Part shown: positions 6,755 through 60,585 of the stretch, piece after piece
Numbering within the stretch: the stretch's first letter is position 1
Layout: each line of letters begins with the position of its first letter
Assembly: GCF_963082655.1 (NCBI RefSeq)
Contig: NC_081554.1
Span: 120,603,869 to 120,667,868, forward strand
Reading direction: 5' to 3'
Length of the DNA: 64,000 nucleotides
Source: Stomoxys calcitrans
Lineage: Eukaryota > Arthropoda > Insecta > Diptera > Muscidae
Notes under the pieces: model-generated
Databases searched by the model: none
The model's input: the letters and a program-made list of their open reading frames with translations, nothing else
What the model was told of the DNA's origin: nothing
Made by a program: the position numbers and the translations under genes

Positions 6755-8380
6755 TTTCAGTGTGGTGGATTAACCAGGTGTAAAGCCACACTGCTAGAGC
6801 TCCATTATGTTGTTGATTTTAGAATTTAATCTTTCACACAGTACGCTCAATTGTACCTTCTACGCGATGGGGAGGAGACTTATTCCTCTATAGTTGGCAC
6901 ATACCGTCTTGTTCACTTTATTGTGTACGGGACGTAGTATGCTGAAATTTCAATCAACTGGAACTGCTTCATGGACCTCGTTTTGACTAGGTGGTTCACA
7001 TTCTATACCAACATCAGCGATTGGTTCTGTGGTATACTCATGATAACCATCATCGGATACCAGCAGCTGGGAAAAGTATTATTTCCACATCCTCAGAAGA
7101 CTATCTATATCAGTTATCAGACTTCAAGAGGATGTGCCTGGACCAAAGCCATTGGTTTGATGTTTAATTCTTTGGTTGAATTTTCGGACTTCATTTTGGC
7201 TCCTGAATATCTCGATTCGTTCACATTCACGTCTTTCCATTTCCTTCTTCTTTTTGCGGAAGAGACGCTTTTCCTCCCTACCTAACTCGTTGCTACCGAC
7301 TTTAAGGTTGCCCTGTATGCCGCACTCTTTGCTTTAGTAGCTTTTTGGTACTCCTGGTCGTACCATGGGTTCCTTAGGGGTGGCTTTCGGTATCCAAGTA
7401 CGGATGTGGCGGCTCTTTCCATATAGTGGGCAATGGTTTGCCATTGCGTTGCTTTACTATCGGGACAAGGAGTGATTTCTTCAAGCAATTAGGTCAGCCG
7501 GGTGGAGTATGCTCCTGTCACCTGTTGTGTTTGCAGCTTTCCGATGACGAGATTCCGTGCAGTGTCAGAACGTACGATTCTCGCCGCACTAAGACGAGTG
7601 TGAACATTTGTTGCAACAAGATAATGATCCAAACCGATTGTACGTCTAACACGCTGGTTGAATGTCTTCCATTTATCACATCATGATCCATTTGGCTTTT
7701 CCTGGTGCCAGCCATGTGACCGTGAGAATCCTTCGATGTTGAAATGTGTTGCTACTAATCACCATGTTCTTTGCCGCGGCGAAGTCCATTATCGGAAGTT
7801 TCTTCGTGTAGGCTGTCCGTCTGTCGCGCCATTGAAATTTTCCTTCCCTATTTTCGCATTAATATCATAAGCGGGACATCGGTCATATTTGACGGTTGAC
7901 GCTCGTAGAAAATATCCATATCTTCCGTTGGGACATGGGCACAAATAAGGCTGATGTTGAAGAATTTGGCCCTTATGCGAATTGTGGCTAGTCTATCATC
8001 CATCGGAGTAAACCTGGAGACATGGTGTTTCAGTCTCCCACTAACCACAAATCCGAACCCAAATTCATGCCTCGTTTCATGGCAGCTATAAAAAATGGCG
8101 TCACCTCTCGGTGTTGTTATGGAGCCCTTCCCGTCCCATCGCACTTCCTGTACGGCGGTAATATATGCCCTGTATTTATCCAATGCATCCGCCAGTGCAT
8201 ATACTGCGCCCTCTCCATAAAGATTGCGGACATTCCAGGTCCAGATATACAAATCATTAATATAGGGGGATCCGTTTTTAATATCCTTTGTTTTTTTTTT
8301 TTCAAAGTAATTTCTTCAAGTTTTCCGGGTGTTAGAGTACTATCCCGACGCCCCAACCCATAATTTTGTCGTTCTACAGG
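6755..8380 (-). pseudogene. RTE-like LINE relic (endonuclease to RT)
   Basis: Minus-strand text starts near 8356 and gives an apurinic-type endonuclease: TWNVRNLYGEGAVYALADAL, then ITAVQEVRWDGKG (catalytic E of QE), FGFGFVVSGRLKHHV and ISLICAHVPTEDMD. A linker follows around 7480-7290 (PPLRNPWYDQEYQKATKAK). Early RT motifs at about 6990-6760 resemble NYRGISLLPIA and QCGFTPG. These are typical of RTE-class elements, which carry endonuclease and RT in one frame. Stops, frameshifts and internal deletions disable it. The RT core and 3' end are missing. Confidence 0.75.
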
Positions 8381-10320: not shown

Positions 10321-10514
10321 ATGCATTCAGAAAAACTCACAGTTTGGTGCGGTTTATGGGCTAGTGGCATCATTGAACCGAACTTTTTCAAAGATGATGC
10401 GAATCGTAACATAACTGTGAATGGTGAGCGCTACCGTGAGATGATATACAATTTTTTTTTTGCCCAAAATACAAGAGCTTGATTTGCATGACATGTGGTT
10501 TGAACAAAACGGTG
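10321..10514 (+). pseudogene. Mariner transposase relic, 5' part
   Basis: Plus-strand text gives EKLTVWCGLWASGIIEPNFF and NRNITVNGERYREM, the central region of a mariner transposase. After a frameshift in the T-run the text continues toward the second catalytic motif. That motif reads QNGATCHTA across the insertion, where the family has QDGA, so the catalytic D is already lost. The 5' part of the gene is missing. The relic is interrupted at 10514 by the RAG1/Transib-type element and resumes at 15876/15881. Confidence 0.85.
10510..10514. other. Target-site duplication CGGTG (left)
   Basis: CGGTG immediately precedes the CACAGTG end and is repeated at 15876-15880 after the opposite end. Removing the element and one CGGTG restores the mariner reading across the join (AACGGTGCCACATGC). 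The 5-bp GC-rich duplication is as known for Transib and RAG transposition. Confidence 0.95.
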
Positions 10515-11945
10515 CACAGTGGGCCAAATGGCAAAAAAATTGGAAATAAGTCTACAACTTTTTATCTGTTGATTTTAGCCATACAAAATGTTCTAGACAT
10601 TTGTAGAGGAGGACATAGGCTTTCAGAAAAGTGCTGTTGTTGGTCCATATCTTTAATACAGGGTGAGCTACAGGGTGTCAAAGTTGACCACTTTTGACTT
10701 CTCCAAGCTTCTGGGGGCCATAACTTTTGATCTACTCAACCGATTTACATGATTTAGGACTCTAGAGAAAGAGCTTGACAAGATCTAAAAAACTTATGCA
10801 TAAAGTACCATGCCATCGTGTACTGTTAAGGAGTTATGAATTGTTTAATTTTAAAATATGAAAATTTGGCCTTGGTTTTTTTCAGTGTTTTTTAAATAAC
10901 TCCGTCAATTTTAAAGCTATAAACTTCATACTTCACACAAATTATGCCAGCATATGTGTGCATAAAATACAAAAGGAATCACGTGAATATCTTTGGCGGT
11001 TTAAAAATGGCATCGTTTTCAATATGAAAAATATTTTTTTTGTCAAAAAATTGCAAAATTTTTCAAAAAAGATACTCCCATTTCCTTTAAGTTTTCGCAA
11101 ACTTTGGCCGTCAAAGCATTATCATTTCTTTCCATTTTCACAAAGTCGAGGTATTAAGAAAAGTTTTAAGTGCTAATTTGGCTAATTTCGATATCAAACA
11201 ACACCGTTATCTTAAGACCAAAATGGCCAATTTTTTTACTAAACTTCAAAAGTTTCTCACTGGAAAAAAAGTTCCACGGGGATTTTTTCGCTTTTTTTGA
11301 ACTTAAATGAAAGCTTAAAATGTTCCCAACATTTTAAGGTATGTCTCGCCATATCCTAGCCATAAATGAGATCGTAGCGATCAAAATACTGAAAAAAGTC
11401 AATTTTCAAGTAGTGCTATATTCATTGCTAAAAAACAAGTATTACGTCACATTTTATTGCAAAGATGTTAAATAAACTTTTATTTGGTAACACTTCTTCT
11501 ACAAAACACAAAAAGAATCATGGAAATATCTCTATTCTATTCCATTTTATGGAACCGGCAATAAAAAAGTCAATTTTTCAAAAAAGTCGAATTTCCCAAA
11601 TTTTGTTTTTGTTGTCCTAATTGCACATGACACACTATAGCCATATTTACGCAACATACCTTATCGTAAAGGAAATTTTCATACCTTTCCAACAATGTAT
11701 AAAACATTTCTCAACTCGGATTCTATCTACTCTAAAATTCATTTACACTTCATTAAACTCTATATAAAAATGTCTATTTGTGAAATGGAACCTTATATGG
11801 GGCCTACACTAAAACATTGATAGATTTGCCCAGGGTTTACAATACAAATGTGTTAGAATAAAAAAAGGTCTCCTGCCAAAGTTTAAAAAAATTGGAATAA
11901 AAATATGTGTTTTAGAGCGAAAACACTTCGCATCGGCGTGCGTTT
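10515..11945 (+). repeat. Left terminal inverted repeat, 1431 bp
   Basis: Begins with CACAGTG. Twelve bases further in is an A-run (AAAAAATTG), loosely reminiscent of a signal nonamer, but the match is weak. Every block compared with 14445-15875 is identical except one base near 11877. A 72-residue open frame (from 10958) appears in mirrored form in the other arm and is probably chance. The end at CGTTT is set by loss of match. Confidence 0.92.
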
Positions 11946-11993
11946 ATATGTATATTAGCTACTCCCAAAATAAAAAAGCATTTTAGTTTTGTA

Positions 11994-14048
11994 TTATTTG
12001 ATTTTATTCTCTACCAAATAATCTAAGGTATCAAAATTTAAAAGCTCTTTAATTTGAATGGCATCGGGATCGTCCTTATCTATATCGTCACATATTTTTG
12101 GTAGCCATTTAGTTCTGATGCTGTATAGTACCGGATCAGACGATAACAATAAATATTGAAGTAAATCATAATTTTGGTTAAATTTGGTGCTCTTTCGGGT
12201 ATTGAAAAGCCGGAACTGTTTAACATCTCTATTACGGGATTCCTGAGCTTCTTCTGTAAGTTCTCCTAACGGAAGTATGTTGTATTCCACAATTTCCTTG
12301 CCATGATGTAAGACTTTATGTACTGTCGGTGTTAAAGCTTTCCACGAATATAAATCAGATAAAATGTTTTTTGTGTCATTACTATAAGCTTCAAATTTGG
12401 TTGAATTTATCATCTTTTTGCTATTGATTACAGCCAAAATCACTTTGAATCGTCTTAGCAAGTGTTCATCAAGACCGGTTATTTTAGATGTCGATACGGG
12501 GTCCTCAAAAAACCGCCTTGCCGAGTTGCCATCATTTGTGCTTCCGTATCCGTAAAGAGGTTTATCTATTATAAGTCCCTTTTGTTTAAACTCCAACTGG
12601 ATTCGATTCTTCTCTTCCTGCCTCATTTTGTGAAGATCTTGGTTGTTTCTAGCAGAGACATCGCGGTTTCCAGGGCTAGTCCGATATTTAAGGTCATACG
12701 ATAAATGCAAACAATACTCCATGAATCGAATTCTACAGTGCAGGGGCGAAATACCGAAATTGAGCGCATTTTCGTTTACTAAATTTTCATCAGACTTGTC
12801 CTCGAATTGCCCATTCTTCTTGCCACAAATATTGCATCTCCAATTGGACATAACGCCAGTTAATGCGTTTGCCACCTTTCCATCGATCATAGTGAGTTGT
12901 AGTTGAAACGAAACTTTTATATTTCTTCCCAATTGGTTTATAACAATCATGGGTAATGCAGCAATTTCTTCCTTTATTTCGTTCACCAAAGATCGTGTTG
13001 TGTTCCGGTCTTCCTTTGTATACTCAAACCGAATTGGGCGACATAAATATTTTGACCCAGGTGTTCTATTTATCCATATATCTTGAAATGCATTTTCTTT
13101 CGATGATGAAGATTGGTCCTTGTACAATCTCATTCTCAATGGTACTAATGATGCCATGAAAATTGATGCGAAGTTGGTATCTATTTCTGTTTGTTGCTTA
13201 TATTCGGAAAATCCAGATGATCCATCACAACCCCATTTGCTGATCAAAACCACTTCGGAATTATTACATGTGTTCAACTGTTCTTCAGTAAAATTAGAAA
13301 TAATTCTAACAGCTGTATTTTCAACAAGATCAGCAAGTTTCACTCTTGCTTTTAATTCGTCCACGTATATATTTGATGGCACCATTTTCGTCCTGGTGTT
13401 GTACAATTTATGTTTTGAGGGTAAACAACCCCATCCTTTTTCACGAAGAGCCTTCCTCATTGTTGAGTATTTGTTTCTTGAGAGGCCTAGGTTCAAAATC
13501 AGGGCCAGTGCATCTTCCTCCGTGAATTCTGTAGTCGATTTTGGAGTTGGAATACTTTCTACCATTCTCTTTACCCTTTTCGGAGATGCTAATGGTAAAA
13601 CATCGACAATTCGTCCAACATTTTTGTGTTTTGTTTTTGGTTGTGTTTTTAACAATGCTGTTTTGAACGTATCTTTTATTAAATTTGGCGGATGTGCCGC
13701 CAATAGTTCCTCTTGTTTTTTCTTTTTGGTTTTCTCCGTAACTTCGTCGTATGCTTTGCTAGGCCGGCCGGGAATCAGCGGTTTAATTTCAATAAGTAGA
13801 TCCGATTTCAGCCACTTCTCATACATTTTGAAAAACTTGATTTTTGCGAATGAACATTCTGGCAACCTTCTCTCAAATGATTTGTAGAATTTTTCAAGTT
13901 TGTCTAAAGCGTCTTTATTTAGCCTTATTCCATATATGTGGTCCAAAGTGTAAACAAGTTCCTTAAATGACTCCGTGTATGATTTGGAATCATTTTTGAT
14001 GTCCCATACAATTTTCGAAAGAGTGGAATACTTCAGTATGACTTCCAT
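11994..14048 (-). CDS. RAG1/Transib-type transposase, 684 aa, intact
   Basis: A single open frame without visible introns encodes the recombinase of the surrounding element. An N-terminal basic region precedes a helical segment, ALALILNLGLSRNKYSTMRK (181-200). The RNase H-like core follows: KWGCDGSSGFSEYKQ carries D275 (RAG1 D600), and LTMIDGKVANAL carries D389 (D708). A zinc pair, C405 and C408 (WRCNIC, as RAG1 C727/C730), comes 16 residues later. A conserved STNDGNSARRFFE follows, then H577 and H582 (VHKVLHHG, as H937/H942) and TEEAQESRN with E603 (E962). The H582-E603 spacing is 21 against 20 in RAG1. Length is normal for Transib. No RING or other vertebrate RAG1 N-terminal domain was recognised. 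The known role is to nick and hairpin DNA at the heptamer border. The 396 bp between the start and the right repeat probably holds the promoter. Assignment is strong; activity is untested. Confidence 0.93.
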   Translation of the reverse strand: MEVILKYSTLSKIVWDIKNDSKSYTESFKELVYTLDHIYGIRLNKDALDKLEKFYKSFERRLPECSFAKIKFFKMYEKWLKSDLLIEIKPLIPGRPSKAYDEVTEKTKKKKQEELLAAHPPNLIKDTFKTALLKTQPKTKHKNVGRIVDVLPLASPKRVKRMVESIPTPKSTTEFTEEDALALILNLGLSRNKYSTMRKALREKGWGCLPSKHKLYNTRTKMVPSNIYVDELKARVKLADLVENTAVRIISNFTEEQLNTCNNSEVVLISKWGCDGSSGFSEYKQQTEIDTNFASIFMASLVPLRMRLYKDQSSSSKENAFQDIWINRTPGSKYLCRPIRFEYTKEDRNTTRSLVNEIKEEIAALPMIVINQLGRNIKVSFQLQLTMIDGKVANALTGVMSNWRCNICGKKNGQFEDKSDENLVNENALNFGISPLHCRIRFMEYCLHLSYDLKYRTSPGNRDVSARNNQDLHKMRQEEKNRIQLEFKQKGLIIDKPLYGYGSTNDGNSARRFFEDPVSTSKITGLDEHLLRRFKVILAVINSKKMINSTKFEAYSNDTKNILSDLYSWKALTPTVHKVLHHGKEIVEYNILPLGELTEEAQESRNRDVKQFRLFNTRKSTKFNQNYDLLQYLLLSSDPVLYSIRTKWLPKICDDIDKDDPDAIQIKELLNFDTLDYLVENKIK

Positions 14049-14444
14049 AACTTATAAATGTCCTTTACGCCTCTACAAAATATAATGAAGAAAATTTGGA
14101 TTTTGTTCAAATATTTATGCAATATATTCACAATTAATGACCCATTTCAGGTATCAGACGCAATCGTTAAAAGGGGTCCAAAGTGCCTCTTTTTACTTAC
14201 TCTTCTATAATTATTTACCTGGACTCGAATTTGGTTAAAAAAAATGACAATGAATTTTTTATGGGTAGGTTTTTTCACATTCATTGATACGGTGGATTTC
14301 CTGGGAATTCGACATAGCGAAACAGGTAACATTTGTCTGCATCAAATCTTAACACAAATATATATATATATGCAGGTATATTTCTAGGTTACTTTTTATT
14401 CAAAAATCATCAGCTTACATTAAAAATAGATGTAGGTACTATAC

Positions 14445-15875
14445 AAACGCACGCCGATGCGAAGTGTTTTCGCTCTAAAACACATATTTTTATTCCAATT
14501 TTTTTAAACTTAGGCAGGAGACCTTTTTTTATTCTAACACATTTGTATTGTAAACCCTGGGCAAATCTATCAATGTTTTAGTGTAGGCCCCATATAAGGT
14601 TCCATTTCACAAATAGACATTTTTATATAGAGTTTAATGAAGTGTAAATGAATTTTAGAGTAGATAGAATCCGAGTTGAGAAATGTTTTATACATTGTTG
14701 GAAAGGTATGAAAATTTCCTTTACGATAAGGTATGTTGCGTAAATATGGCTATAGTGTGTCATGTGCAATTAGGACAACAAAAACAAAATTTGGGAAATT
14801 CGACTTTTTTGAAAAATTGACTTTTTTATTGCCGGTTCCATAAAATGGAATAGAATAGAGATATTTCCATGATTCTTTTTGTGTTTTGTAGAAGAAGTGT
14901 TACCAAATAAAAGTTTATTTAACATCTTTGCAATAAAATGTGACGTAATACTTGTTTTTTAGCAATGAATATAGCACTACTTGAAAATTGACTTTTTTCA
15001 GTATTTTGATCGCTACGATCTCATTTATGGCTAGGATATGGCGAGACATACCTTAAAATGTTGGGAACATTTTAAGCTTTCATTTAAGTTCAAAAAAAGC
15101 GAAAAAATCCCCGTGGAACTTTTTTTCCAGTGAGAAACTTTTGAAGTTTAGTAAAAAAATTGGCCATTTTGGTCTTAAGATAACGGTGTTGTTTGATATC
15201 GAAATTAGCCAAATTAGCACTTAAAACTTTTCTTAATACCTCGACTTTGTGAAAATGGAAAGAAATGATAATGCTTTGACGGCCAAAGTTTGCGAAAACT
15301 TAAAGGAAATGGGAGTATCTTTTTTGAAAAATTTTGCAATTTTTTGACAAAAAAAATATTTTTCATATTGAAAACGATGCCATTTTTAAACCGCCAAAGA
15401 TATTCACGTGATTCCTTTTGTATTTTATGCACACATATGCTGGCATAATTTGTGTGAAGTATGAAGTTTATAGCTTTAAAATTGACGGAGTTATTTAAAA
15501 AACACTGAAAAAAACCAAGGCCAAATTTTCATATTTTAAAATTAAACAATTCATAACTCCTTAACAGTACACGATGGCATGGTACTTTATGCATAAGTTT
15601 TTTAGATCTTGTCAAGCTCTTTCTCTAGAGTCCTAAATCATGTAAATCGGTTGAGTAGATCAAAAGTTATGGCCCCCAGAAGCTTGGAGAAGTCAAAAGT
15701 GGTCAACTTTGACACCCTGTAGCTCACCCTGTATTAAAGATATGGACCAACAACAGCACTTTTCTGAAAGCCTATGTCCTCCTCTACAAATGTCTAGAAC
15801 ATTTTGTATGGCTAAAATCAACAGATAAAAAGTTGTAGACTTATTTCCAATTTTTTTGCCATTTGGCCCACTGTG
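14445..15875 (-). repeat. Right terminal inverted repeat, 1431 bp
   Basis: Mirror of 10515-11945, ending CACTGTG. The arms are the same length to the base. With 2.5 kb between them they form a very long potential stem. Confidence 0.92.
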
Positions 15876-16326
15876 CGGTGCCACATGCCATACAGCACGC
15901 GTAACGATGGACTTATTTAGAGGCGAGTTCGGTAAACACTTTCGCGATCGGGACCGGTCAATTGGCCGCCTAGATCGTGCGATTTAACACCTTTCGACTA
16001 TTTTTTGTGGGGTTATGTTCAAGCTCATGTCTGTACAGACAAGCCAGGTTCAATAGACGCATAGGACTCATACGCTTAGTCCAATTTTGGCATACTCTTT
16101 CCAACATTTCTGCCGATATCTTACGAATAAATGCTTCAATGTTGTCTTCCAATGCGTCAATTGAAGTGGGCCATTTGAGGCGCAGTCACGGTCAACATTT
16201 GCATGAAATAATCTTCAATCATTAAATTATATGGACTAGCGATTCAAATAAAGATTTCATGCATTTTTCTGAATTTTATATGTGCTATATTAAAACTTTT
16301 CTATAGCTCTTAAAAAATCACCCCGT
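15876..16326 (+). pseudogene. Mariner transposase relic, 3' part, with inversion
   Basis: Resumes the mariner reading after the target duplication: GATCHTARVTMDLFRGEFG, then frameshifted text matching CDLTPFDYFLWGYV, the third acidic motif region. At about 16052-16165 the sequence flips: the complement reads IDALEDNIEAFIRKISAEML and RVCQNWTKRM. The forward text then resumes as the usual C-terminal RRSHGQHLHEIIF. The 3' end at about 16326 shows TTAAAAAATCACCCC, a mariner terminus. CGGTG at 15876-15880 is the right target duplication of the inserted element. Confidence 0.82.
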
Positions 16327-34720: not shown

Positions 34721-36361
34721 CAGCGGTCAAAAAAAGTATTCATCATTAGCAAAATTGATAATAAATTCACTTATTTTGGGTAATTGAAGAAAATTTAAAG
34801 TAAACAAATAATGCAGTTTTATGCAATAGTTTATTTTTCGTAATATGTTTTAAAATAAATTCAAAAAATAATTTTAATTAGCGCAAAAAATGCAATTTTA
34901 TATAATAACACCAAAAACAGAACAAAAAAAGTATTCATCATTGATGTGCTATCATCAAAGTCAAATTCAAATATTATTTGGGAATCCCCCTTTTCTGTTT
35001 TATTTAGTAAAGGAGGCTTTGCCCTTGACAGCAAATATTTAATTTCATTGAAAATATAGTTTTTGTCAAAATGGGTCGTAAGCAAAACGAGGTTTCTGAT
35101 GAGGTAAAAGTTTTGATAATAAAACACCACAGGAATGGTTTAACTCAAAAAACTATCAGTGAAATATTAAATAGACCACGATCTACTATACAATCCATCA
35201 TCAGAAAGTGGACAGAAACGAAAACTGTTGACAATAAACCAAGATCTGGTCGACCAAAAGCACTTTCAGTTGGAGATGTGCGTTGGCTAGTGCGGCAAGT
35301 TCAGAAAACTCCGAAGACAAATGCGACCATTCTTCGTAAAAACACTATGGAATATTTAGGGAAGGAAGTTACTACACAAACAATTCGAAATACACTCAAA
35401 AGGCATAGTTACAGAGGAAGAACTGCACGTAAGAAGCCCTTTATAAATAAAATAAACCGAGTGAAAAGGCTAAACTTCGCAAAAATGTATGTAAAACAGC
35501 CCGAATCATTTTGGAAAACAGTCATTTTTGCAGACGAGAGCAAGTTTAATCTTTTTGGGTGCGATGGAAAGGTCATAGTGTACAGAAAACCAAATACAGA
35601 GCTTGAAGAACGAAACACAGTTGCTACTGTAAAACATGGTGGAGGTGGTTTAATGGTTTGGGGGTGTATGGCGGCTTCAGGAGCGGGAAATCTTGAAATT
35701 ATTAATGGAGTAATGGATCATAAGTATTACATTGACATTTTAAAGAGGAATTTAAAAGATAGTGCTGTAAAACTTGGGCTTGGTAATAACTTTCAATATT
35801 ATCAAGATAATGACCCCAAACATTCTGCTTTAAATACCAAGATGTGGATGCTGTATAACTGCCCCAAAGTCATTAAAACTCCTCCTCAAAGTCCCGACTT
35901 GAACCCAATTGAACATCTTTGGGAACATCTCGAACGCAAATTGAGAACGCGCAATTTTTCGAGCAAGAGTCAAATGCAACAGGTGATAATGGAGGAATGG
36001 ACTAATATAGACCAAAATATTACCGCTAAATTAGTCCAATCGATGTCAAACCGTTTAAAAGATGTTATAAAACGCGGTGGTCGAATAACAAAGTATTAAT
36101 TTTTTTAAATTATGTTATTTATTTTTTTGTTTTTTTTGCAATGATGAATACTTTTTTTGTTTAATTTTTTGTGTTCAGCTGTAAAATGGCCCTTTTTGTT
36201 CCAATAAATACTATTTTTTTCTTTAAAAACAATGAAATTGTGTACATATATATCACACAAGCACTACTGCATCATTAGTTTAATATGTTTTTATTCCAAT
36301 TGTCTTTTGTAGACTTATTAAAAAAAAAACATTGAATGATGAATACTTTTTTTGACCGCTG
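34721..36361 (+). mobile_element. Intact Tc1-family transposon, 1641 bp
   Basis: Flanked by TA. Ends are perfect 27-bp inverted repeats starting CAGCGGTCAAAAAAAGTATT. The sequence CAAAAAAAGTATTCATCATT recurs about 195 bp inside the left end (34923) and, inverted, about 195 bp inside the right end (36140-36159). This gives the inverted-repeat/direct-repeat arrangement that binds transposase at four sites. One open transposase gene lies between. Structurally autonomous. Confidence 0.95.
35071..36099 (+). CDS. Tc1-family DD34E transposase, 342 aa
   Basis: The enzyme cuts and pastes the surrounding element at TA sites. The N-terminal half has two helix-turn-helix modules (about residues 1-110), including LTQKTISEILNRPRSTIQSI, with the GRPK hook (GRPKALS, 60-66). 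The catalytic core follows: D155 in VIFADESKF, the glycine-rich HGGGGLMVWGCM (189-200), D246 in QDNDPKHS and E281 in NPIEHLW. D246 and E281 are separated by 34 residues, the Tc1 DD34E signature. Length is normal and there are no stops. The start at 35071 is the first ATG, in context GTCAAAATGG. Product is probably functional, but that is untested. Confidence 0.96.
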   Translation: MGRKQNEVSDEVKVLIIKHHRNGLTQKTISEILNRPRSTIQSIIRKWTETKTVDNKPRSGRPKALSVGDVRWLVRQVQKTPKTNATILRKNTMEYLGKEVTTQTIRNTLKRHSYRGRTARKKPFINKINRVKRLNFAKMYVKQPESFWKTVIFADESKFNLFGCDGKVIVYRKPNTELEERNTVATVKHGGGGLMVWGCMAASGAGNLEIINGVMDHKYYIDILKRNLKDSAVKLGLGNNFQYYQDNDPKHSALNTKMWMLYNCPKVIKTPPQSPDLNPIEHLWEHLERKLRTRNFSSKSQMQQVIMEEWTNIDQNITAKLVQSMSNRLKDVIKRGGRITKY

Positions 36362-54549: not shown

Positions 54550-57350
54550 TCTACCTATTACGAAAAAATTTTAAAGTCTTTTGGAGTAGGCTAGAAATAG
54601 ACTCCAAAAACTCAACATCTGCGGTGGTGGCGTCAAACCGTAGCATGTTGTCCTCCGCTCCTAAAGGTGTGGATGCCTTGGCACCTGTAGTCGAGAGTAA
54701 TGCTTCAAGCGCACAACTAGTCGCCAGACTAATTAATGAGGAACAGATGGATAAACCAGAGGGATGCACAGTTCGTCCCCAGCCTTCAAGTAAAGGTGGT
54801 GTTTCTGACTCAGACAGCGACGGTGTCAATGAAACAGTCATCGCAGCCGAATCGAGAGATGAGGGCATCGGGATGATGGCAGAAGTAAGTGATGGCATTG
54901 CTAAGCTCACATGCAGACCGAGAAAGCGATCCGGTGCACGACGAAGGAGTATCTACCAACAGCGACAAGAGTCTCAATGCAACCCGACGAACAGGGAGCC
55001 AATGATGGTACCATCACCTACTCCCAAGAAGCCCATTTACTTAGGATGTGGAAGGCTAATATAGGCAAAGATCCTAGTACTGAAACATCAGGTAGTTAAG
55101 GGAATTGAAACCCAATACAGGTTAATGAACAAGGACCCGACGATTGAACCATTACCGACTTTATAATGAGTAGGAAGACTAAACTAGGCAAAGAACCTAA
55201 AACGATGACATCAGACAGTGCAGTGACAGGAAAGTTAATGCAGTCTAAAGAGCAGGGAGCAGACGATGAGATCCCAAGATGCCCATTTACTGGAGGACCA
55301 ATGATTGAGGTAATCCAGATAAACCTCCACCGGAAAGAGACTGCTACACACGCTCTGATGGAGAAAATCAGCAAGGGCAAGATTCATATTGCCTTAATTC
55401 AGGAGCCATGGACGACCCGGAATAAAGTTTCTGGAATGGTACTCGTCCGAGGACCTGCGTTATTTGTCATAAGAATTTGAATTATATATTTTCCCCAGAG
55501 TTGTCAACGTCGGATGCAACAGTGGTGAGACAGGGAGACGGTGGAGCATACCTGGCATCACTTAATCTGCCTTTCGACTATCTGACACCACCACCCACGT
55601 CGGAGCTGGAACGGCTGGTGAGGAAAGCAAAACAGACAGGAAACGAGGTACTAATAGGGTGCGATGCGAACTCTCGCCACATTTCGTGGGGTAGTACCAA
55701 CACTAATAAGCGGAGCAAAGCCCTGGCTGAGTTCTTGAATACTAACGACCTAATAACACTTAATATTGGTAACACTACTACCTTTGTTAATAGGATTAGG
55801 GAGGAGGTATTAGATGTGACGATATGTTCAGAAAATCTAATCGATGAGGTTCAGGATTGGAGGGTCTCCATGCAACACTCTTTCTCTGACCATCGCTACA
55901 TTACGTTTATAATAGCACGGACAGGATGCTATTTTAAACCTATTCAGAAGAAGACTTGGCCAAGATAATTTAGGTTGTCCAAGTATAGAAGACATTGGCG
56001 ACAATGTCAACAGGATAACAACTGCGCTGGTAGAATCCTCCGAAGATTGTTGTCCTCTTCGGGAAAGGAAATCAGCCCAAGAAAAACCTTGGATTACCGG
56101 GGAGATTTGCAATATTGGGAAAGAGGTCCGCAGACTTTTTAACAGAGCACGTCGTAAAAAAACGGAAGTTTATTGGGTATTACACACGGCTCAAGGAATA
56201 CAATAAGATTACCCGAGCGGCAAAACGTGCCACCTGAAGCTTTTCTGCGAACAGGTCGATAACGCCGCCAAGATAAAAAGTTTCTCTCAAAAACCATTGT
56301 CCAAACTGAAACTTAAGTAGACGACGTGGGAGTGAGAGCAGAGATAACGGAGGACATGTCGAGGTTTTTGATGATAACCCATTTTCCACAGGATACGACG
56401 GGACTCACGGAGACACCGGAATGTTGGAATAATGACGTTGATAGAAGTTTTATAATTTCGGAATTTATGGTGAAGGAATCCTTGAGGAGCTTCAAACCAT
56501 TTAAATCACCCGGACTTGATGGGATATTTCCGGCGTTACTACAGAAAGAGGCAGACTATCAGGCGCCTCATCTGGCCAAAATGTTCACAGCGTGCCTAGG
56601 ACTTTCATATACTCCGAAAGCCAGGCAGGAGGCAAGGCTGGTGTTTATACCAATGCTCGGCAAGGCAAGTTATGCGACATCAAAGGCCTACAGACCCATA
56701 AGCTTTACGTCCTTTCTATTTAAAACTATGGAATGTGTTGTGAACACCATGATAAAGAGTAGGACATCCAGCGAACTGCTCAAATACAAACAGCATGCCT
56801 ATGGAAGGTCGGTGGAGACTGCCCTGCACGAGGTTGTGCATAAAATAGAAGAATCCTTTGATGCCAAAACGTACACACTGGCGATATGCATTGACATCGA
56901 GGGGGCTTTTAACAATGTGCGGACCGACACAATGATCTAATCCTTAGACCAGTACTGGGTGAACTCGGTCCTTAGAGACTGGATACACTCCAAGCTAAGG
57001 AACAGGTGCCCTATGGCATAAATATAGGGGAGAAAGTGGCACAGGGCATGCCACAGGGGGGCATTTTATCGACACTCCTATGGGTGGCCACCATAAATCA
57101 CCTATTACGCATGCTGACTGAGGAGGGATTTGATCCCGTATGCTACGCAGACGAAGTTATAATACTTCTAAGGGGTAAGGATCCGAACCAGCTATGCAAA
57201 AGGGCTGAAAGGGTATTGCATATGGCATATGACTGGGCTAGACCCAGAGGTCTCAATGTTAGCCCAGAGAAAACTGAGTTATTTGCGCCTTTAAAAAACC
57301 AATGGCCATCAGCGCCACTTGACAAGCATCCCCTACTGCACATGTAAATG
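54550..57350 (+). pseudogene. LINE relic: ORF1, endonuclease, RT
   Basis: The longest LINE copy here. In order: ORF1-like text with acidic VSDSDSDGVNETVIAAESRD and basic RPRKRSGARRRSIYQQR (54624-55060); tandem modules (55020-55290); endonuclease start VIQINLHRKETATHAL and IHIALIQEPW (catalytic E); VLIGCDANSRHISWGSTN (catalytic D and N); and HSFSDHRYITF (catalytic H, 55880). RT text follows with FKSPGLDGIFPALLQKE, AYRPISFTSFLFKTMECVV, AICIDIEGAFNN, QGMPQGGILSTLLW and CYADEVIILL, where YADD has become YADE. At least four frame breaks. R1/LOA-like by motifs. Confidence 0.8.
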
Positions 57351-58428
57351 TGGCTACAGCAACAATAGATCCCCACGGTTGAACTCATCTAACACATTCT
57401 GAAGTCTTTCTTCAATTGTTTGAGCTTTCCAATCTTTTAACAAAGAGCCAAATAAAAAATGTAAAAAATACATTTTCCTTTCCCCCTTAAATTGAATGTA
57501 ACCGGAGTGGCTATAATAAAAATAAACGGTAAAAAAACCCTAAAGGACAAATGAGCATTAATTTATGAGAGTTTATTAGTTTCCTACCATAATCATAAAA
57601 ATGACATAACCTTTTGCTTCTCACTAATATTTTTAAATCAGAGAATCATAAAAAAGTCGTCAAAGTTTTTTCCAAAAATTATTCCAAATAAAATAAAAAC
57701 GAAGTATGTTAACTGTTCATAGGTTATGTGGCTTTTCGTGGAGGTTGTAAGACTTGATTAAAAAGAAAAAAATTTACATTTTTTCACGAAAATAAAATTT
57801 CAAATTGGTTGTGGGTGATATTTTTAATATGTAAATGGAATAAACGTTATTTTAGTCCTTGATAGGCAAAAGTTCATCCATTCGTGCAACAGGAAATAGT
57901 TTTTAAGAAAAAAAGTCATCACCCAAATGTGCATACATACTTATGAATCTACTTTTGCCTCCCTTGTTTAAATTTAGAAATTGTGTTTTTGGTTCTAGAT
58001 CTACCTAAAAAAGATAAGTAGAGGATTAACCACGTAATAAGGGTTGACAATTTCCATAAAATTATTGCAGCAAAGATAAAGTTAACACAATTGGCACTCA
58101 GGTGTTTCGTGTAACAGGTGTGGTCTGATTATAAACGCGCAACAGTTTGTTCGCTCGCATGTTACAGCATGTTGCGAAGGGCGATTTCCATTTTTATTGT
58201 ATATCTACTGAGTTGCATACTCCACATAACCACTTAGCAGGTAGTAATGGAATTCGCTCTCTGATCACTTCCTAATTGCAATTACGTATGTGGCAGTCAC
58301 TTTGTTGGTAGTAATAGATATTTTTAGTAACATTTACCATTTTCGAGACTTAAATACGACTTAATTCCAGTATATGATACGGTGCGACGCGATTTCAATT
58401 GTACAGGATTTTAAAATATAATCGCCAG
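57351..58428. other. Upstream region of the EPS8-like gene
   Basis: About 1 kb of AT-rich DNA with no transposon I can identify, in contrast with the rest of the window. The promoter and 5' UTR of the gene probably lie here or further left. CGCCAG just before the ATG could be a splice acceptor of an untranslated first exon. Confidence 0.4.
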
Positions 58429-60585
58429 ATGTCACAGTACAACCCACATAGCCACGGCAAGCTATCGAGAAAACTCAGTGAAAATATTACAGACGGTCTT
58501 GATGAAGATGACAATCGGTTGCAACAGTACCGACCGTCGAAGGCATTACAAGAGAAAAGAAGCCATGTCATGGAACATTTGGCGACTTTCACGGTGAACA
58601 GGGATGCAGGTATAGTTCATCCAATGGATGGAATGCGCCGACTTTTGCAAATGGAGAAAAACACAGGAATTTGGTCGCAAAAAATGAGGCTTTGTTTGGA
58701 CAATGGGCATGTTCTTATAACCGATTACGAGACGGGGGTAAGCAAATGCCATCGACATAAGCAAATGCGTGACCTAAAAATGCATTAATATTTCTAGGAT
58801 TTGATTGAGAAGTTTCCATCTTACCTCGTTGAGTGTCCAACTGCCTTTACTTCCGACGACGTTCTTGAATTGTACAACAATGTCTTGGTGTTTATTGTTT
58901 CAGCTGCTTCTGGTGCTCAATCCGAAATGCATATCTTTCAGGTATTTGTGTTTAATTGTCATTTTTTTTGTTTAAATAGCTCTTTAATGCGTTGTTAAAT
59001 AGTCCCAAAGCATGTCGGCTGTTGATTTAGTCCAAGAAATAAAATCGCTGCAAAGTAATGACTTACAGGCGAAAGCACCAATAATGCCTTCTAAATATCA
59101 AGCTGTTTCCACCCATTCATCCGCTAAGAAAAATACAAATATGGAATTTTATAAACACCACAGTGATGACCACAGATACCATCATAGTGCAGAAAAAGGA
59201 ACCACTATACATGGCGAACACAACGACTATGATCATAAAGAATTTGCAGTAAATGACCCGTTCGGATCAAGATGTGGTTCCCCAGATGTTGCCGGCATTG
59301 AAATGAGTACATCTCAAGGCCGAAGATTTTTCGAAGACACTTGTTCCGTGTCGAGTGAGAGATACGAAAGAGAAGTTTGTATTCTGAATAGCTGCTTTGA
59401 CGACATTGAAAAATTTATTGCACGCCTGCAACACACGGCAGCTGCTGTAAGAGAGGTAGAAAGACGAAGACATAAACATCGGGAAATCGGCGACGGTCTC
59501 ATAAATCTTCATACTCGCCCTCCAATGGAGAAAGAGTTTGTGGAAATCTTGGGGAAATTTAAGTTGTCATTTAACCTTCTTTCGAAATTAAAAACACATA
59601 TTCATGATCCAAATGCGCCCGAATTGGTTCATTTTCTCTTTACGCCTCTTGCTTTAATTGTGGAGGCGGCACGAGATACTTATAGTAAGTCCCAGCTGAC
59701 GTCAAAAGTAATCGAACCACTTTTAACGTCCGATACAATAAACTTTTTAATAAATTGTGTCAGTAGTAAGGAAACAGAACTGTGGAAATCCTTGGGGCCG
59801 TCATGGACCGTGTCCTCCGAACAATGGCATGAAAAGAATGAATTTCATAACACCACTGGATACATTGATAAACGTTTCCAAGACAATGCAGACATAAGTA
59901 ATTTCGACACAGTACTCACATTATCTCGGCCTGAAGATTCTACGAGAGATTTTGAATACTTACAGGACACTCAAAAGACATCGTCGTTTCGCCCGAATGT
60001 TTCAACAAATATGAATTATTTGCATAATGCTGCAGAAGCCACAGAGTCCGCAGGATTTCCCATGTCATCAAACAAACAATACGGTTATAATACAACTCAA
60101 AAATATTTTGAATCTGAAACTGCTGGGACGGATGCTACGGAACACGAAGAGCCAAGACCTGAGAAGAAAAATAAAGGAGAAGGTATTAAGGACATGGTGG
60201 ACACACCACAGTTACACTATTCTAATGAAAAAGCCAGCTATATGCTCCCTGAAATTGATACAATGACCGATCAATGGTTAAATATGCTTCGCAAAAAGGG
60301 CGCAAATACCGCCATGGTCTGCTATCCAAGAATGGCAAACAATGATAAAGAACTAAGCGTTTCGAAAGGGGAATACTTGGAGGTCAGTTGTAATTATTTT
60401 CTTTATTATTATCATTTTTATTTACTAATTCTTTGGCAATTCCCAAAACACAGATATTAGATGACTCTAGAAAATGGTGGAAAGCTCGCAATATGTATGG
60501 CCAGATAGGTCATGTGCCCAGCACAATCGTTGCTTCAGTTCACGGAATTCACGACAACTACAGCAATCAAAAACCATCCAATTAA
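58429..60585 (+). CDS. aru: EPS8-family adaptor (arouser-like), 4 exons, 654 aa
   Basis: Exons 58429-58737, 58798-58941, 59003-60382 and 60454-60585; introns of 60, 61 and 71 bp, all GT-AG and phase 0. An N-terminal PTB domain (about 40-170) contains RSHVMEHLATFTVNRDAGIV, TGIWSQKMRLCLDNGHVLIT and SEMHIFQ. Next are a helical segment (ILNSCFDDIEKFIARLQHTA, about 278-297) and the EPS8 core (KLSFNLLSKLKTHIHDPNAP and LVHFLFTPLALIVEAA, about 338-374), then LWKSLGPSWTVSSEQW. The C-terminal SH3 (about 589-638) has WWKARNMYGQIGHVPSTIV, with Ile where most SH3 domains have the Tyr of SNY, as in EPS8 proteins that bind PxxDY ligands. EPS8 proteins link receptor signalling to Rac and actin. The vertebrate actin-binding tail is absent; the Drosophila relative arouser affects ethanol response. 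The start is the first ATG after CGCCAG; an in-frame ATG at 58399 would add ten residues. Confidence 0.9.

What the first reader, a model, noticed from the sequence alone, without database searches (positions are those of the whole stretch)
10515..15875. Intact RAG1/Transib-type transposon with V(D)J-like ends
Seen: both ends read CACAGTG, identical to the consensus recombination-signal heptamer; a 5-bp CGGTG duplication; an uninterrupted 684-aa transposase. D275, D389 and E603 and the C405/C408/H577/H582 ligands match RAG1 D600, D708, E962 and C727/C730/H937/H942 in order and local spacing. Known: Transib is the insect lineage from which RAG1 is thought to descend. Inference: this copy may still be active and could inform signal recognition without RAG2.
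Basis: partly seen in the sequence, partly recalled or inferred. Interest (0 to 1): 0.9.

Follow-up and report, generated by a model that had tools for sequence, protein, structure and literature searches.

The report
Young, abundant Transib transposon, long arms
This is a complete copy of a jumping gene from the family related to the enzyme that assembles our antibody genes; hundreds of copies, nearly identical where sampled, suggest that it spread through this fly genome very recently and may still be moving.

The parts
10510..10514 (.). left 5-bp target-site duplication CGGTG
   Evidence: 31 of 33 copies (window included) have identical 5-bp flanks, symmetric CGNCG preference
10515..11945 (+). 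left inverted arm (1,431 bp); starts with heptamer CACAGTG; A7 run at arm positions 19-25
11946..14444 (.). unique core, 2,499 bp
11994..14048 (-). 684-aa Transib transposase ORF; D275/D389/E603 triad; C405, C408, H577, H582; GRP motif at 94-96
13622..13633 (.). 12-bp in-frame duplication (placement ambiguous because it is a tandem repeat) that only this copy has among the 33 aligned; it explains 684 instead of 680 aa
   Evidence: the 39 other scored copies all match over 2,040 bp with one identical score
14445..15875 (-). right inverted arm (1,431 bp), 1 mismatch to the left arm, seen in no other of the 33 aligned copies
15876..15880 (.). right 5-bp target-site duplication CGGTG
10405..10514 (+). 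left half of the mariner-like relic into which the element inserted (part used in the empty-site comparison)
15881..15990 (+). right half of the mariner-like relic; the frame continues across the join (WFEQNGATCHTARV); mariner label recalled from the motif, no family search was run on it

Best explanation
A complete, recently inserted, autonomous-looking Transib cut-and-paste transposon of a very young high-copy family (about 768 copies with exact ends) in what is probably the stable fly. Inferred mechanism, from HzTransib: a transposase dimer synapses the two identical CACAGTG ends, nicks at the heptamer, makes hairpins on the flanking DNA and blunt transposon ends, and joins the ends 5 bp apart into CGNCG-like targets; copy number rises when the donor gap is repaired from a sister or homologue. 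Shown: ends, duplications, target preference, intact transposase, empty paralogous site, near-identity of the sampled copies. Inferred: hairpin chemistry, present-day activity (which I put at about 0.55), and that the 1,431-bp arms are identical through recent origin and/or exchange between arms. The confidence below is for a recent Transib family, not for present activity.
Against: No excision, expression or between-strain polymorphism was seen. The 32 fetched copies were returned because one arm matched the window perfectly, and all lie on one contig, so their divergence is biased low; searches scored only 40 of 583 and 40 of 855 candidates, so diverged copies are unseen. Of 48 paired copies 12 are not near full length. 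2 of 32 fetched copies lack matching duplications and 2 of 32 lack the full ORF. Pfam RAG1 falls just below its cut-off (24.1 vs 25 bits). The species was inferred from a contig length. A family that burst and then fell silent recently would look nearly the same.
Confidence: 0.9

Rival explanations
1. A recent burst that has already been silenced (for example by piRNAs): intact copies but no current movement. This shares everything with the best explanation except present activity.
For: Near-identity dates the burst, not the present. Inverted 1,431-bp arms could give double-stranded RNA from read-through transcripts (inference). Of 48 paired copies, 9 are shorter than 5,330 bp, so deleted or non-autonomous copies exist.
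Against: 30 of 32 fetched ORFs are intact; 6 of 33 copies have no substitution at all.
Confidence: 0.4
2. The long arms and identical copies are assembly artefacts (collapsed or foldback reads).
For: Inverted repeats of this length can be misassembled; I saw no reads.
Against: 30 of 32 fetched copies sit between matching 5-bp duplications that differ from copy to copy, and private variants differ between arms and between copies. P0001, from source 'lgn' (which I take, from recall, to be assemblies of public reads), holds the same protein without the 4 extra residues; that bears on the ORF, not on the arms.
Confidence: 0.02
3. A RAG1L/RAG2L (RAGL) transposon rather than a Transib.
For: Shared heptamer start, 5-bp TSD and RAG1-like core.
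Against: Much closer to HzTransib than to RAG1L; among ORFs of at least 80 aa inside the element the only other one over 100 aa is antisense to the transposase. No RAG2 profile search was run.
Confidence: 0.01

Closest known systems
HzTransib (Helicoverpa zea; PDB 6pqn-6pr5; PMC1852546)
   Same: Same superfamily, 37% identity over 472 superposed residues, aligned catalytic triad, 5-bp duplication; described as having 'long TIRs' (passage), so long arms are not unique to the present family.
   Different: 3,518 bp with a 489-aa deduced protein against 5,349 bp and 680 aa with an N-terminal part carrying a GRP motif; the HzTransib arm length is given only in a figure that is not held.
Transib1 of Drosophila (PMC12230796)
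   Same: Transib; recent invasion with highly similar copies (passages).
   Different: 3,030 bp; its spread through D. melanogaster populations in 2013-2016 was tracked in dated samples, whereas here recency is inferred from one assembly. I did not see its arm length.
RAG1/RAG2 recombinase and amphioxus ProtoRAG (BbRAGL)
   Different: No RAG2-like gene seen, no 12/23 asymmetry, no clear nonamer, 14-19% identity.

Membership tests
Transib superfamily | RAG1-like DDE transposase closest to known Transib proteins | tested here: met
Transib superfamily | 5-bp target-site duplication | tested here: met
   31 of 33 copies including the window
Transib superfamily | ends starting with a CAC-type heptamer | tested here: met
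   CACAGTG at both ends here and in 32 of 32 fetched copies (matched on 18 bases); 1,536 exact 36-base ends
Transib superfamily | A-rich nonamer-like element inside the ends | tested here: inconclusive
   A7 at arm positions 19-25; best 9-mers against ACAAAAACC (recalled consensus) have 3 mismatches
Transib superfamily | nick-hairpin cut-and-paste chemistry | not testable with these tools
   inferred from HzTransib (PMC6941560 passages)
RAGL transposon (RAG1L + RAG2L) | RAG2-like gene between the ends | tested here: not met
   ORF list (80 aa and more, ATG/GTG/TTG starts): besides the transposase three ORFs of 80-87 aa and one antisense ORF of 255 aa lie in the element; no RAG2 profile was run and introns were not considered
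V(D)J recombination signal sequences | heptamer, 12- or 23-bp spacer, nonamer, asymmetric pair | tested here: not met
   heptamer met; at a 12-bp spacer the 9-mer has 4 mismatches and a 23-bp spacer is not among the six best shown; the two ends are identical for 1,363 bp here and 1,431 bp in the consensus

The most novel reading that the evidence does not exclude
A fold-back-armed Transib: two kilobase-scale inverted arms, kept identical by exchange between ends (mirror-image variants seen on opposite arms of different copies), accompany a very large recent Transib expansion with a full-length, GRP-motif-bearing transposase that is still mobile in a living fly, giving a natural RAG1 relative whose excision products and end exchange can be watched in vivo.
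Probability: 0.3. Interest if true: 0.65.

Novelty: new member of a known kind. Interest (0 to 1): 0.5.

Why it matters
As far as I know (recalled, not surveyed), biochemistry of stand-alone Transib enzymes rests largely on HzTransib. Here is a family whose sequence says that it moved very recently, with hundreds of copies and a longer protein that keeps the N-terminal GRP region which PMC9435367 equates with the RAG1 nonamer-binding domain (passages). It offers a natural test of how RAG1's relatives recognise symmetric ends without RAG2, and another dipteran case, beside Drosophila Transib1, of a recent Transib expansion, probably in a livestock pest where insertions could be tracked in archived samples.

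Tried and rejected
Considered and dropped: the heptamer alone as evidence (chance level); a RAG2-containing element; assembly artefact. A scan of IMG/VR viral contigs (81 pattern stretches) and one of GTDB genome contigs (37) confirmed no relative by tblastn, so no vector or prokaryotic source was identified. N-terminal region vs RAG1 NBD: hhalign probability 21.6% alone and 65.7% with the start of the core, weak by itself; the equivalence is already in print (PMC9435367, passages), so I claim nothing new there. VIA-align covered residues 171-651 in a fifth or more of its rows; the N-terminal part was not folded or searched alone. Paper searches on Transib with long inverted repeats: 'long terminal inverted repeats' 0 papers, 'bp TIRs' with 'burst' 0, 'long inverted repeats' 0, 'long TIRs' 11 papers, of which only PMC1852546 was opened on this point; 'Stomoxys calcitrans' with 'Transib' 0. 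Many papers are not held, so this shows no absence from print. No paper was read whole: I saw passages of PMC7204232, PMC4411706, PMC8355894, PMC1852546, PMC6941560, PMC7944917, PMC9435367, PMC12230796 and PMC12974806, and only listings or abstract starts of the rest.

Arm-exchange test: 3 of 13 left-arm variant positions mirror right-arm variants (14 positions) with the same base change; position-only P = 0.00022. One of the three (380/4970) lies beside a T run and could be recurrent; in the same shuffles 2 or more coincidences came 1,324 times in 200,000 (0.0066); I did not rerun it with that site left out. Insertions and deletions were not used. No arm substitution was present in both arms of one copy, but the sample was selected for having one perfect arm, which excludes such copies. 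A pattern count that would reduce this bias did not complete. Searches for older relatives in the same genome did not complete either.

Full report
What is there. The element spans 10515-15875 (5,361 bp). It starts and ends with CACAGTG and is flanked by CGGTG on both sides. The heptamer by itself is at chance level in this window (6 hits, mean 3.62 in shuffles). Between the arms lie 2,499 bp of unique core with one long gene on the minus strand, 11994-14048, 684 aa.

Kin. In a tree of 60 proteins (of 121 on hand; at least 470 aa, the first 60 in order) the window groups with P0001 and P0003 (99/96), then in an 11-row clade (100/99) that holds an Eumeta japonica protein (P0025); the Stomoxys protein P0055 and the Helicoverpa armigera protein P0050 fall in another part of the tree. 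Most rows have no named source, so I make no claim on horizontal transfer.

N-terminal part. Residues 1-168 have no aligned counterpart in the HzTransib PDB chain. G94 is invariant and P96 nearly so in the 48 aligned proteins, in a GRP motif like that opening the RAG1 nonamer-binding domain (GGRPR; PMC6941560 passage); a profile comparison is weakly positive. PMC9435367 already reports an equivalent domain in Transibs (passages).

The genome. The window is at C3:120603869-120667868 of a 1,070,917,216-bp assembly in 297 contigs. Contig C1 is 271,964,629 bp long, the same as the longest contig of an NCBI Stomoxys calcitrans protein (P0055); I infer the stable fly. The left-arm query gave 583 candidates, of which 40 were scored, all 40 at 100% over 1,426 bp. 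These are 32 elements, all on C1, and I fetched all 32. 32 of 32 have both ends and 30 of 32 identical 5-bp duplications; L034 and L038 do not. 23 of the 32 are exactly 5,349 bp. 30 of 32 keep a 680-aa ORF; L027 carries deletions (longest ORF 242 aa) and L051 has an ORF shortened to 449 aa. With the window, 33 copies average 1.52 substitutions from their consensus (maximum 4; 6 copies have none), and the mean pairwise difference is 0.00055. These copies came up because one arm was perfect, so this is a biased, low estimate.

Less biased counts. A query with the ORF gave 855 candidates, 40 scored: the window and 39 copies on C1, all 39 at one identical score over 2,040 bp. The 36-bp end occurs 771 times forward and 765 reverse, with 0 and 0 for the reversed control, i.e. 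about 768 copies if all ends are paired. The first 100 listed ends (C1, 0-65.7 Mb) form 48 pairs and 4 single ends; 36 of the 48 pairs are 5,330-5,370 bp, 25 of these exactly 5,349, 9 are shorter and 3 longer. Density there (0.73 pairs/Mb) is close to the genome-wide figure (0.72/Mb). If all 768 were full length they would be 0.38% of the assembly. Copies with altered ends are not counted.

This copy. It differs from the consensus by a 12-bp in-frame duplication (684 instead of 680 aa) and two substitutions, one of them the only arm mismatch; none of the three is in another of the 33 aligned copies. The 680-aa protein P0001, from the unnamed source 'lgn', is otherwise identical to it.

Target sites. 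31 of 33 copies have matching duplications with a symmetric CGNCG preference. The window copy sits in a mariner-like relic whose frame continues across the joined flanks. In L004 a paralogous relic runs uninterrupted with a single CGGTG at the join: an empty site. L051 is an independent insertion at the same aligned base of another relic, with CGGCG duplicated.

Ends and V(D)J. The heptamer is the consensus RSS heptamer (recalled) and occurs once per arm, at its tip, with up to one mismatch allowed. There is no good nonamer: best 3 mismatches of 9, at spacers 9 and 11; at spacer 12, 4 mismatches. Both ends are identical, so nothing like the 12/23 rule can act. Symmetric Transib ends are known (PMC8355894 legend passage; PMC9435367).

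The arms. In the consensus the arms are identical over all 1,431 bp. Either the duplication arose shortly before the burst or the arms are homogenised. Three variants occur on the left arm in some copies and, mirror-imaged, on the right arm in others: 1180 (L038) with 4170 (L028, L036, L042, L051); 165 (L034) with 5185 (L026); 380 (L030) with 4970 (L026, L050). Position-only P for 3 or more coincidences is 0.00022. This suggests exchange between arms by gene conversion or by inversion of the core, but the sample is small and selected, no copy has a substitution on both arms, and one site is beside a T run. Long arms in Transib are not new: Hztransib is described as having long TIRs (PMC1852546, passage).

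Age. About 2.8e-4 substitutions per site, at a recalled fly-like rate of 3e-9 per generation, gives an order of 1e5 generations; this is inference from a sample biased low.

Verdict. A new member of a known kind: a Transib family in a recent, possibly ongoing expansion.

Noticed in passing
window 10405-10514 + 15881-15990; L004 3599-3844; L051: A mariner-like repeat family was hit twice independently by this Transib at the same aligned base (CGGTG here, CGGCG in L051), with an uninterrupted paralogue in L004.
   Followed up: yes
window 35056-36096 (+): Uninterrupted 347-aa Tc1/mariner-type transposase (Pfam HTH_Tnp_Tc3_2, HTH_SB, DDE_3); may be another young element.
   Followed up: partly
window 58378-60460 (+): Exons of an EPS8-like host gene (PTB and EPS8 spectrin-like domains).
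   Followed up: partly
window 55426-56940 (+) and 7851-8315 (-): Fragments with endonuclease and reverse-transcriptase domains (the 7851-8315 match is below Pfam's cut-off), likely non-LTR retrotransposon remains.
   Followed up: partly
L034 and L038: Two copies lack matching duplications (TGCCG/CAGCG and CGTTG/CGTGG): possible recombination between copies, or a later point change.
   Followed up: no
G000 C1:23890603-23905186 and C1:65466957-65473980: End pairs 14,584 and 7,024 bp apart: possibly copies carrying inserted DNA, or ends of two different copies.
   Followed up: no
protein P0039 (Stomoxys calcitrans): A 410-aa Stomoxys protein at 48% identity over 60% of the query suggests a related Transib family in the same species; searches for it in the genome did not complete.
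   Followed up: no
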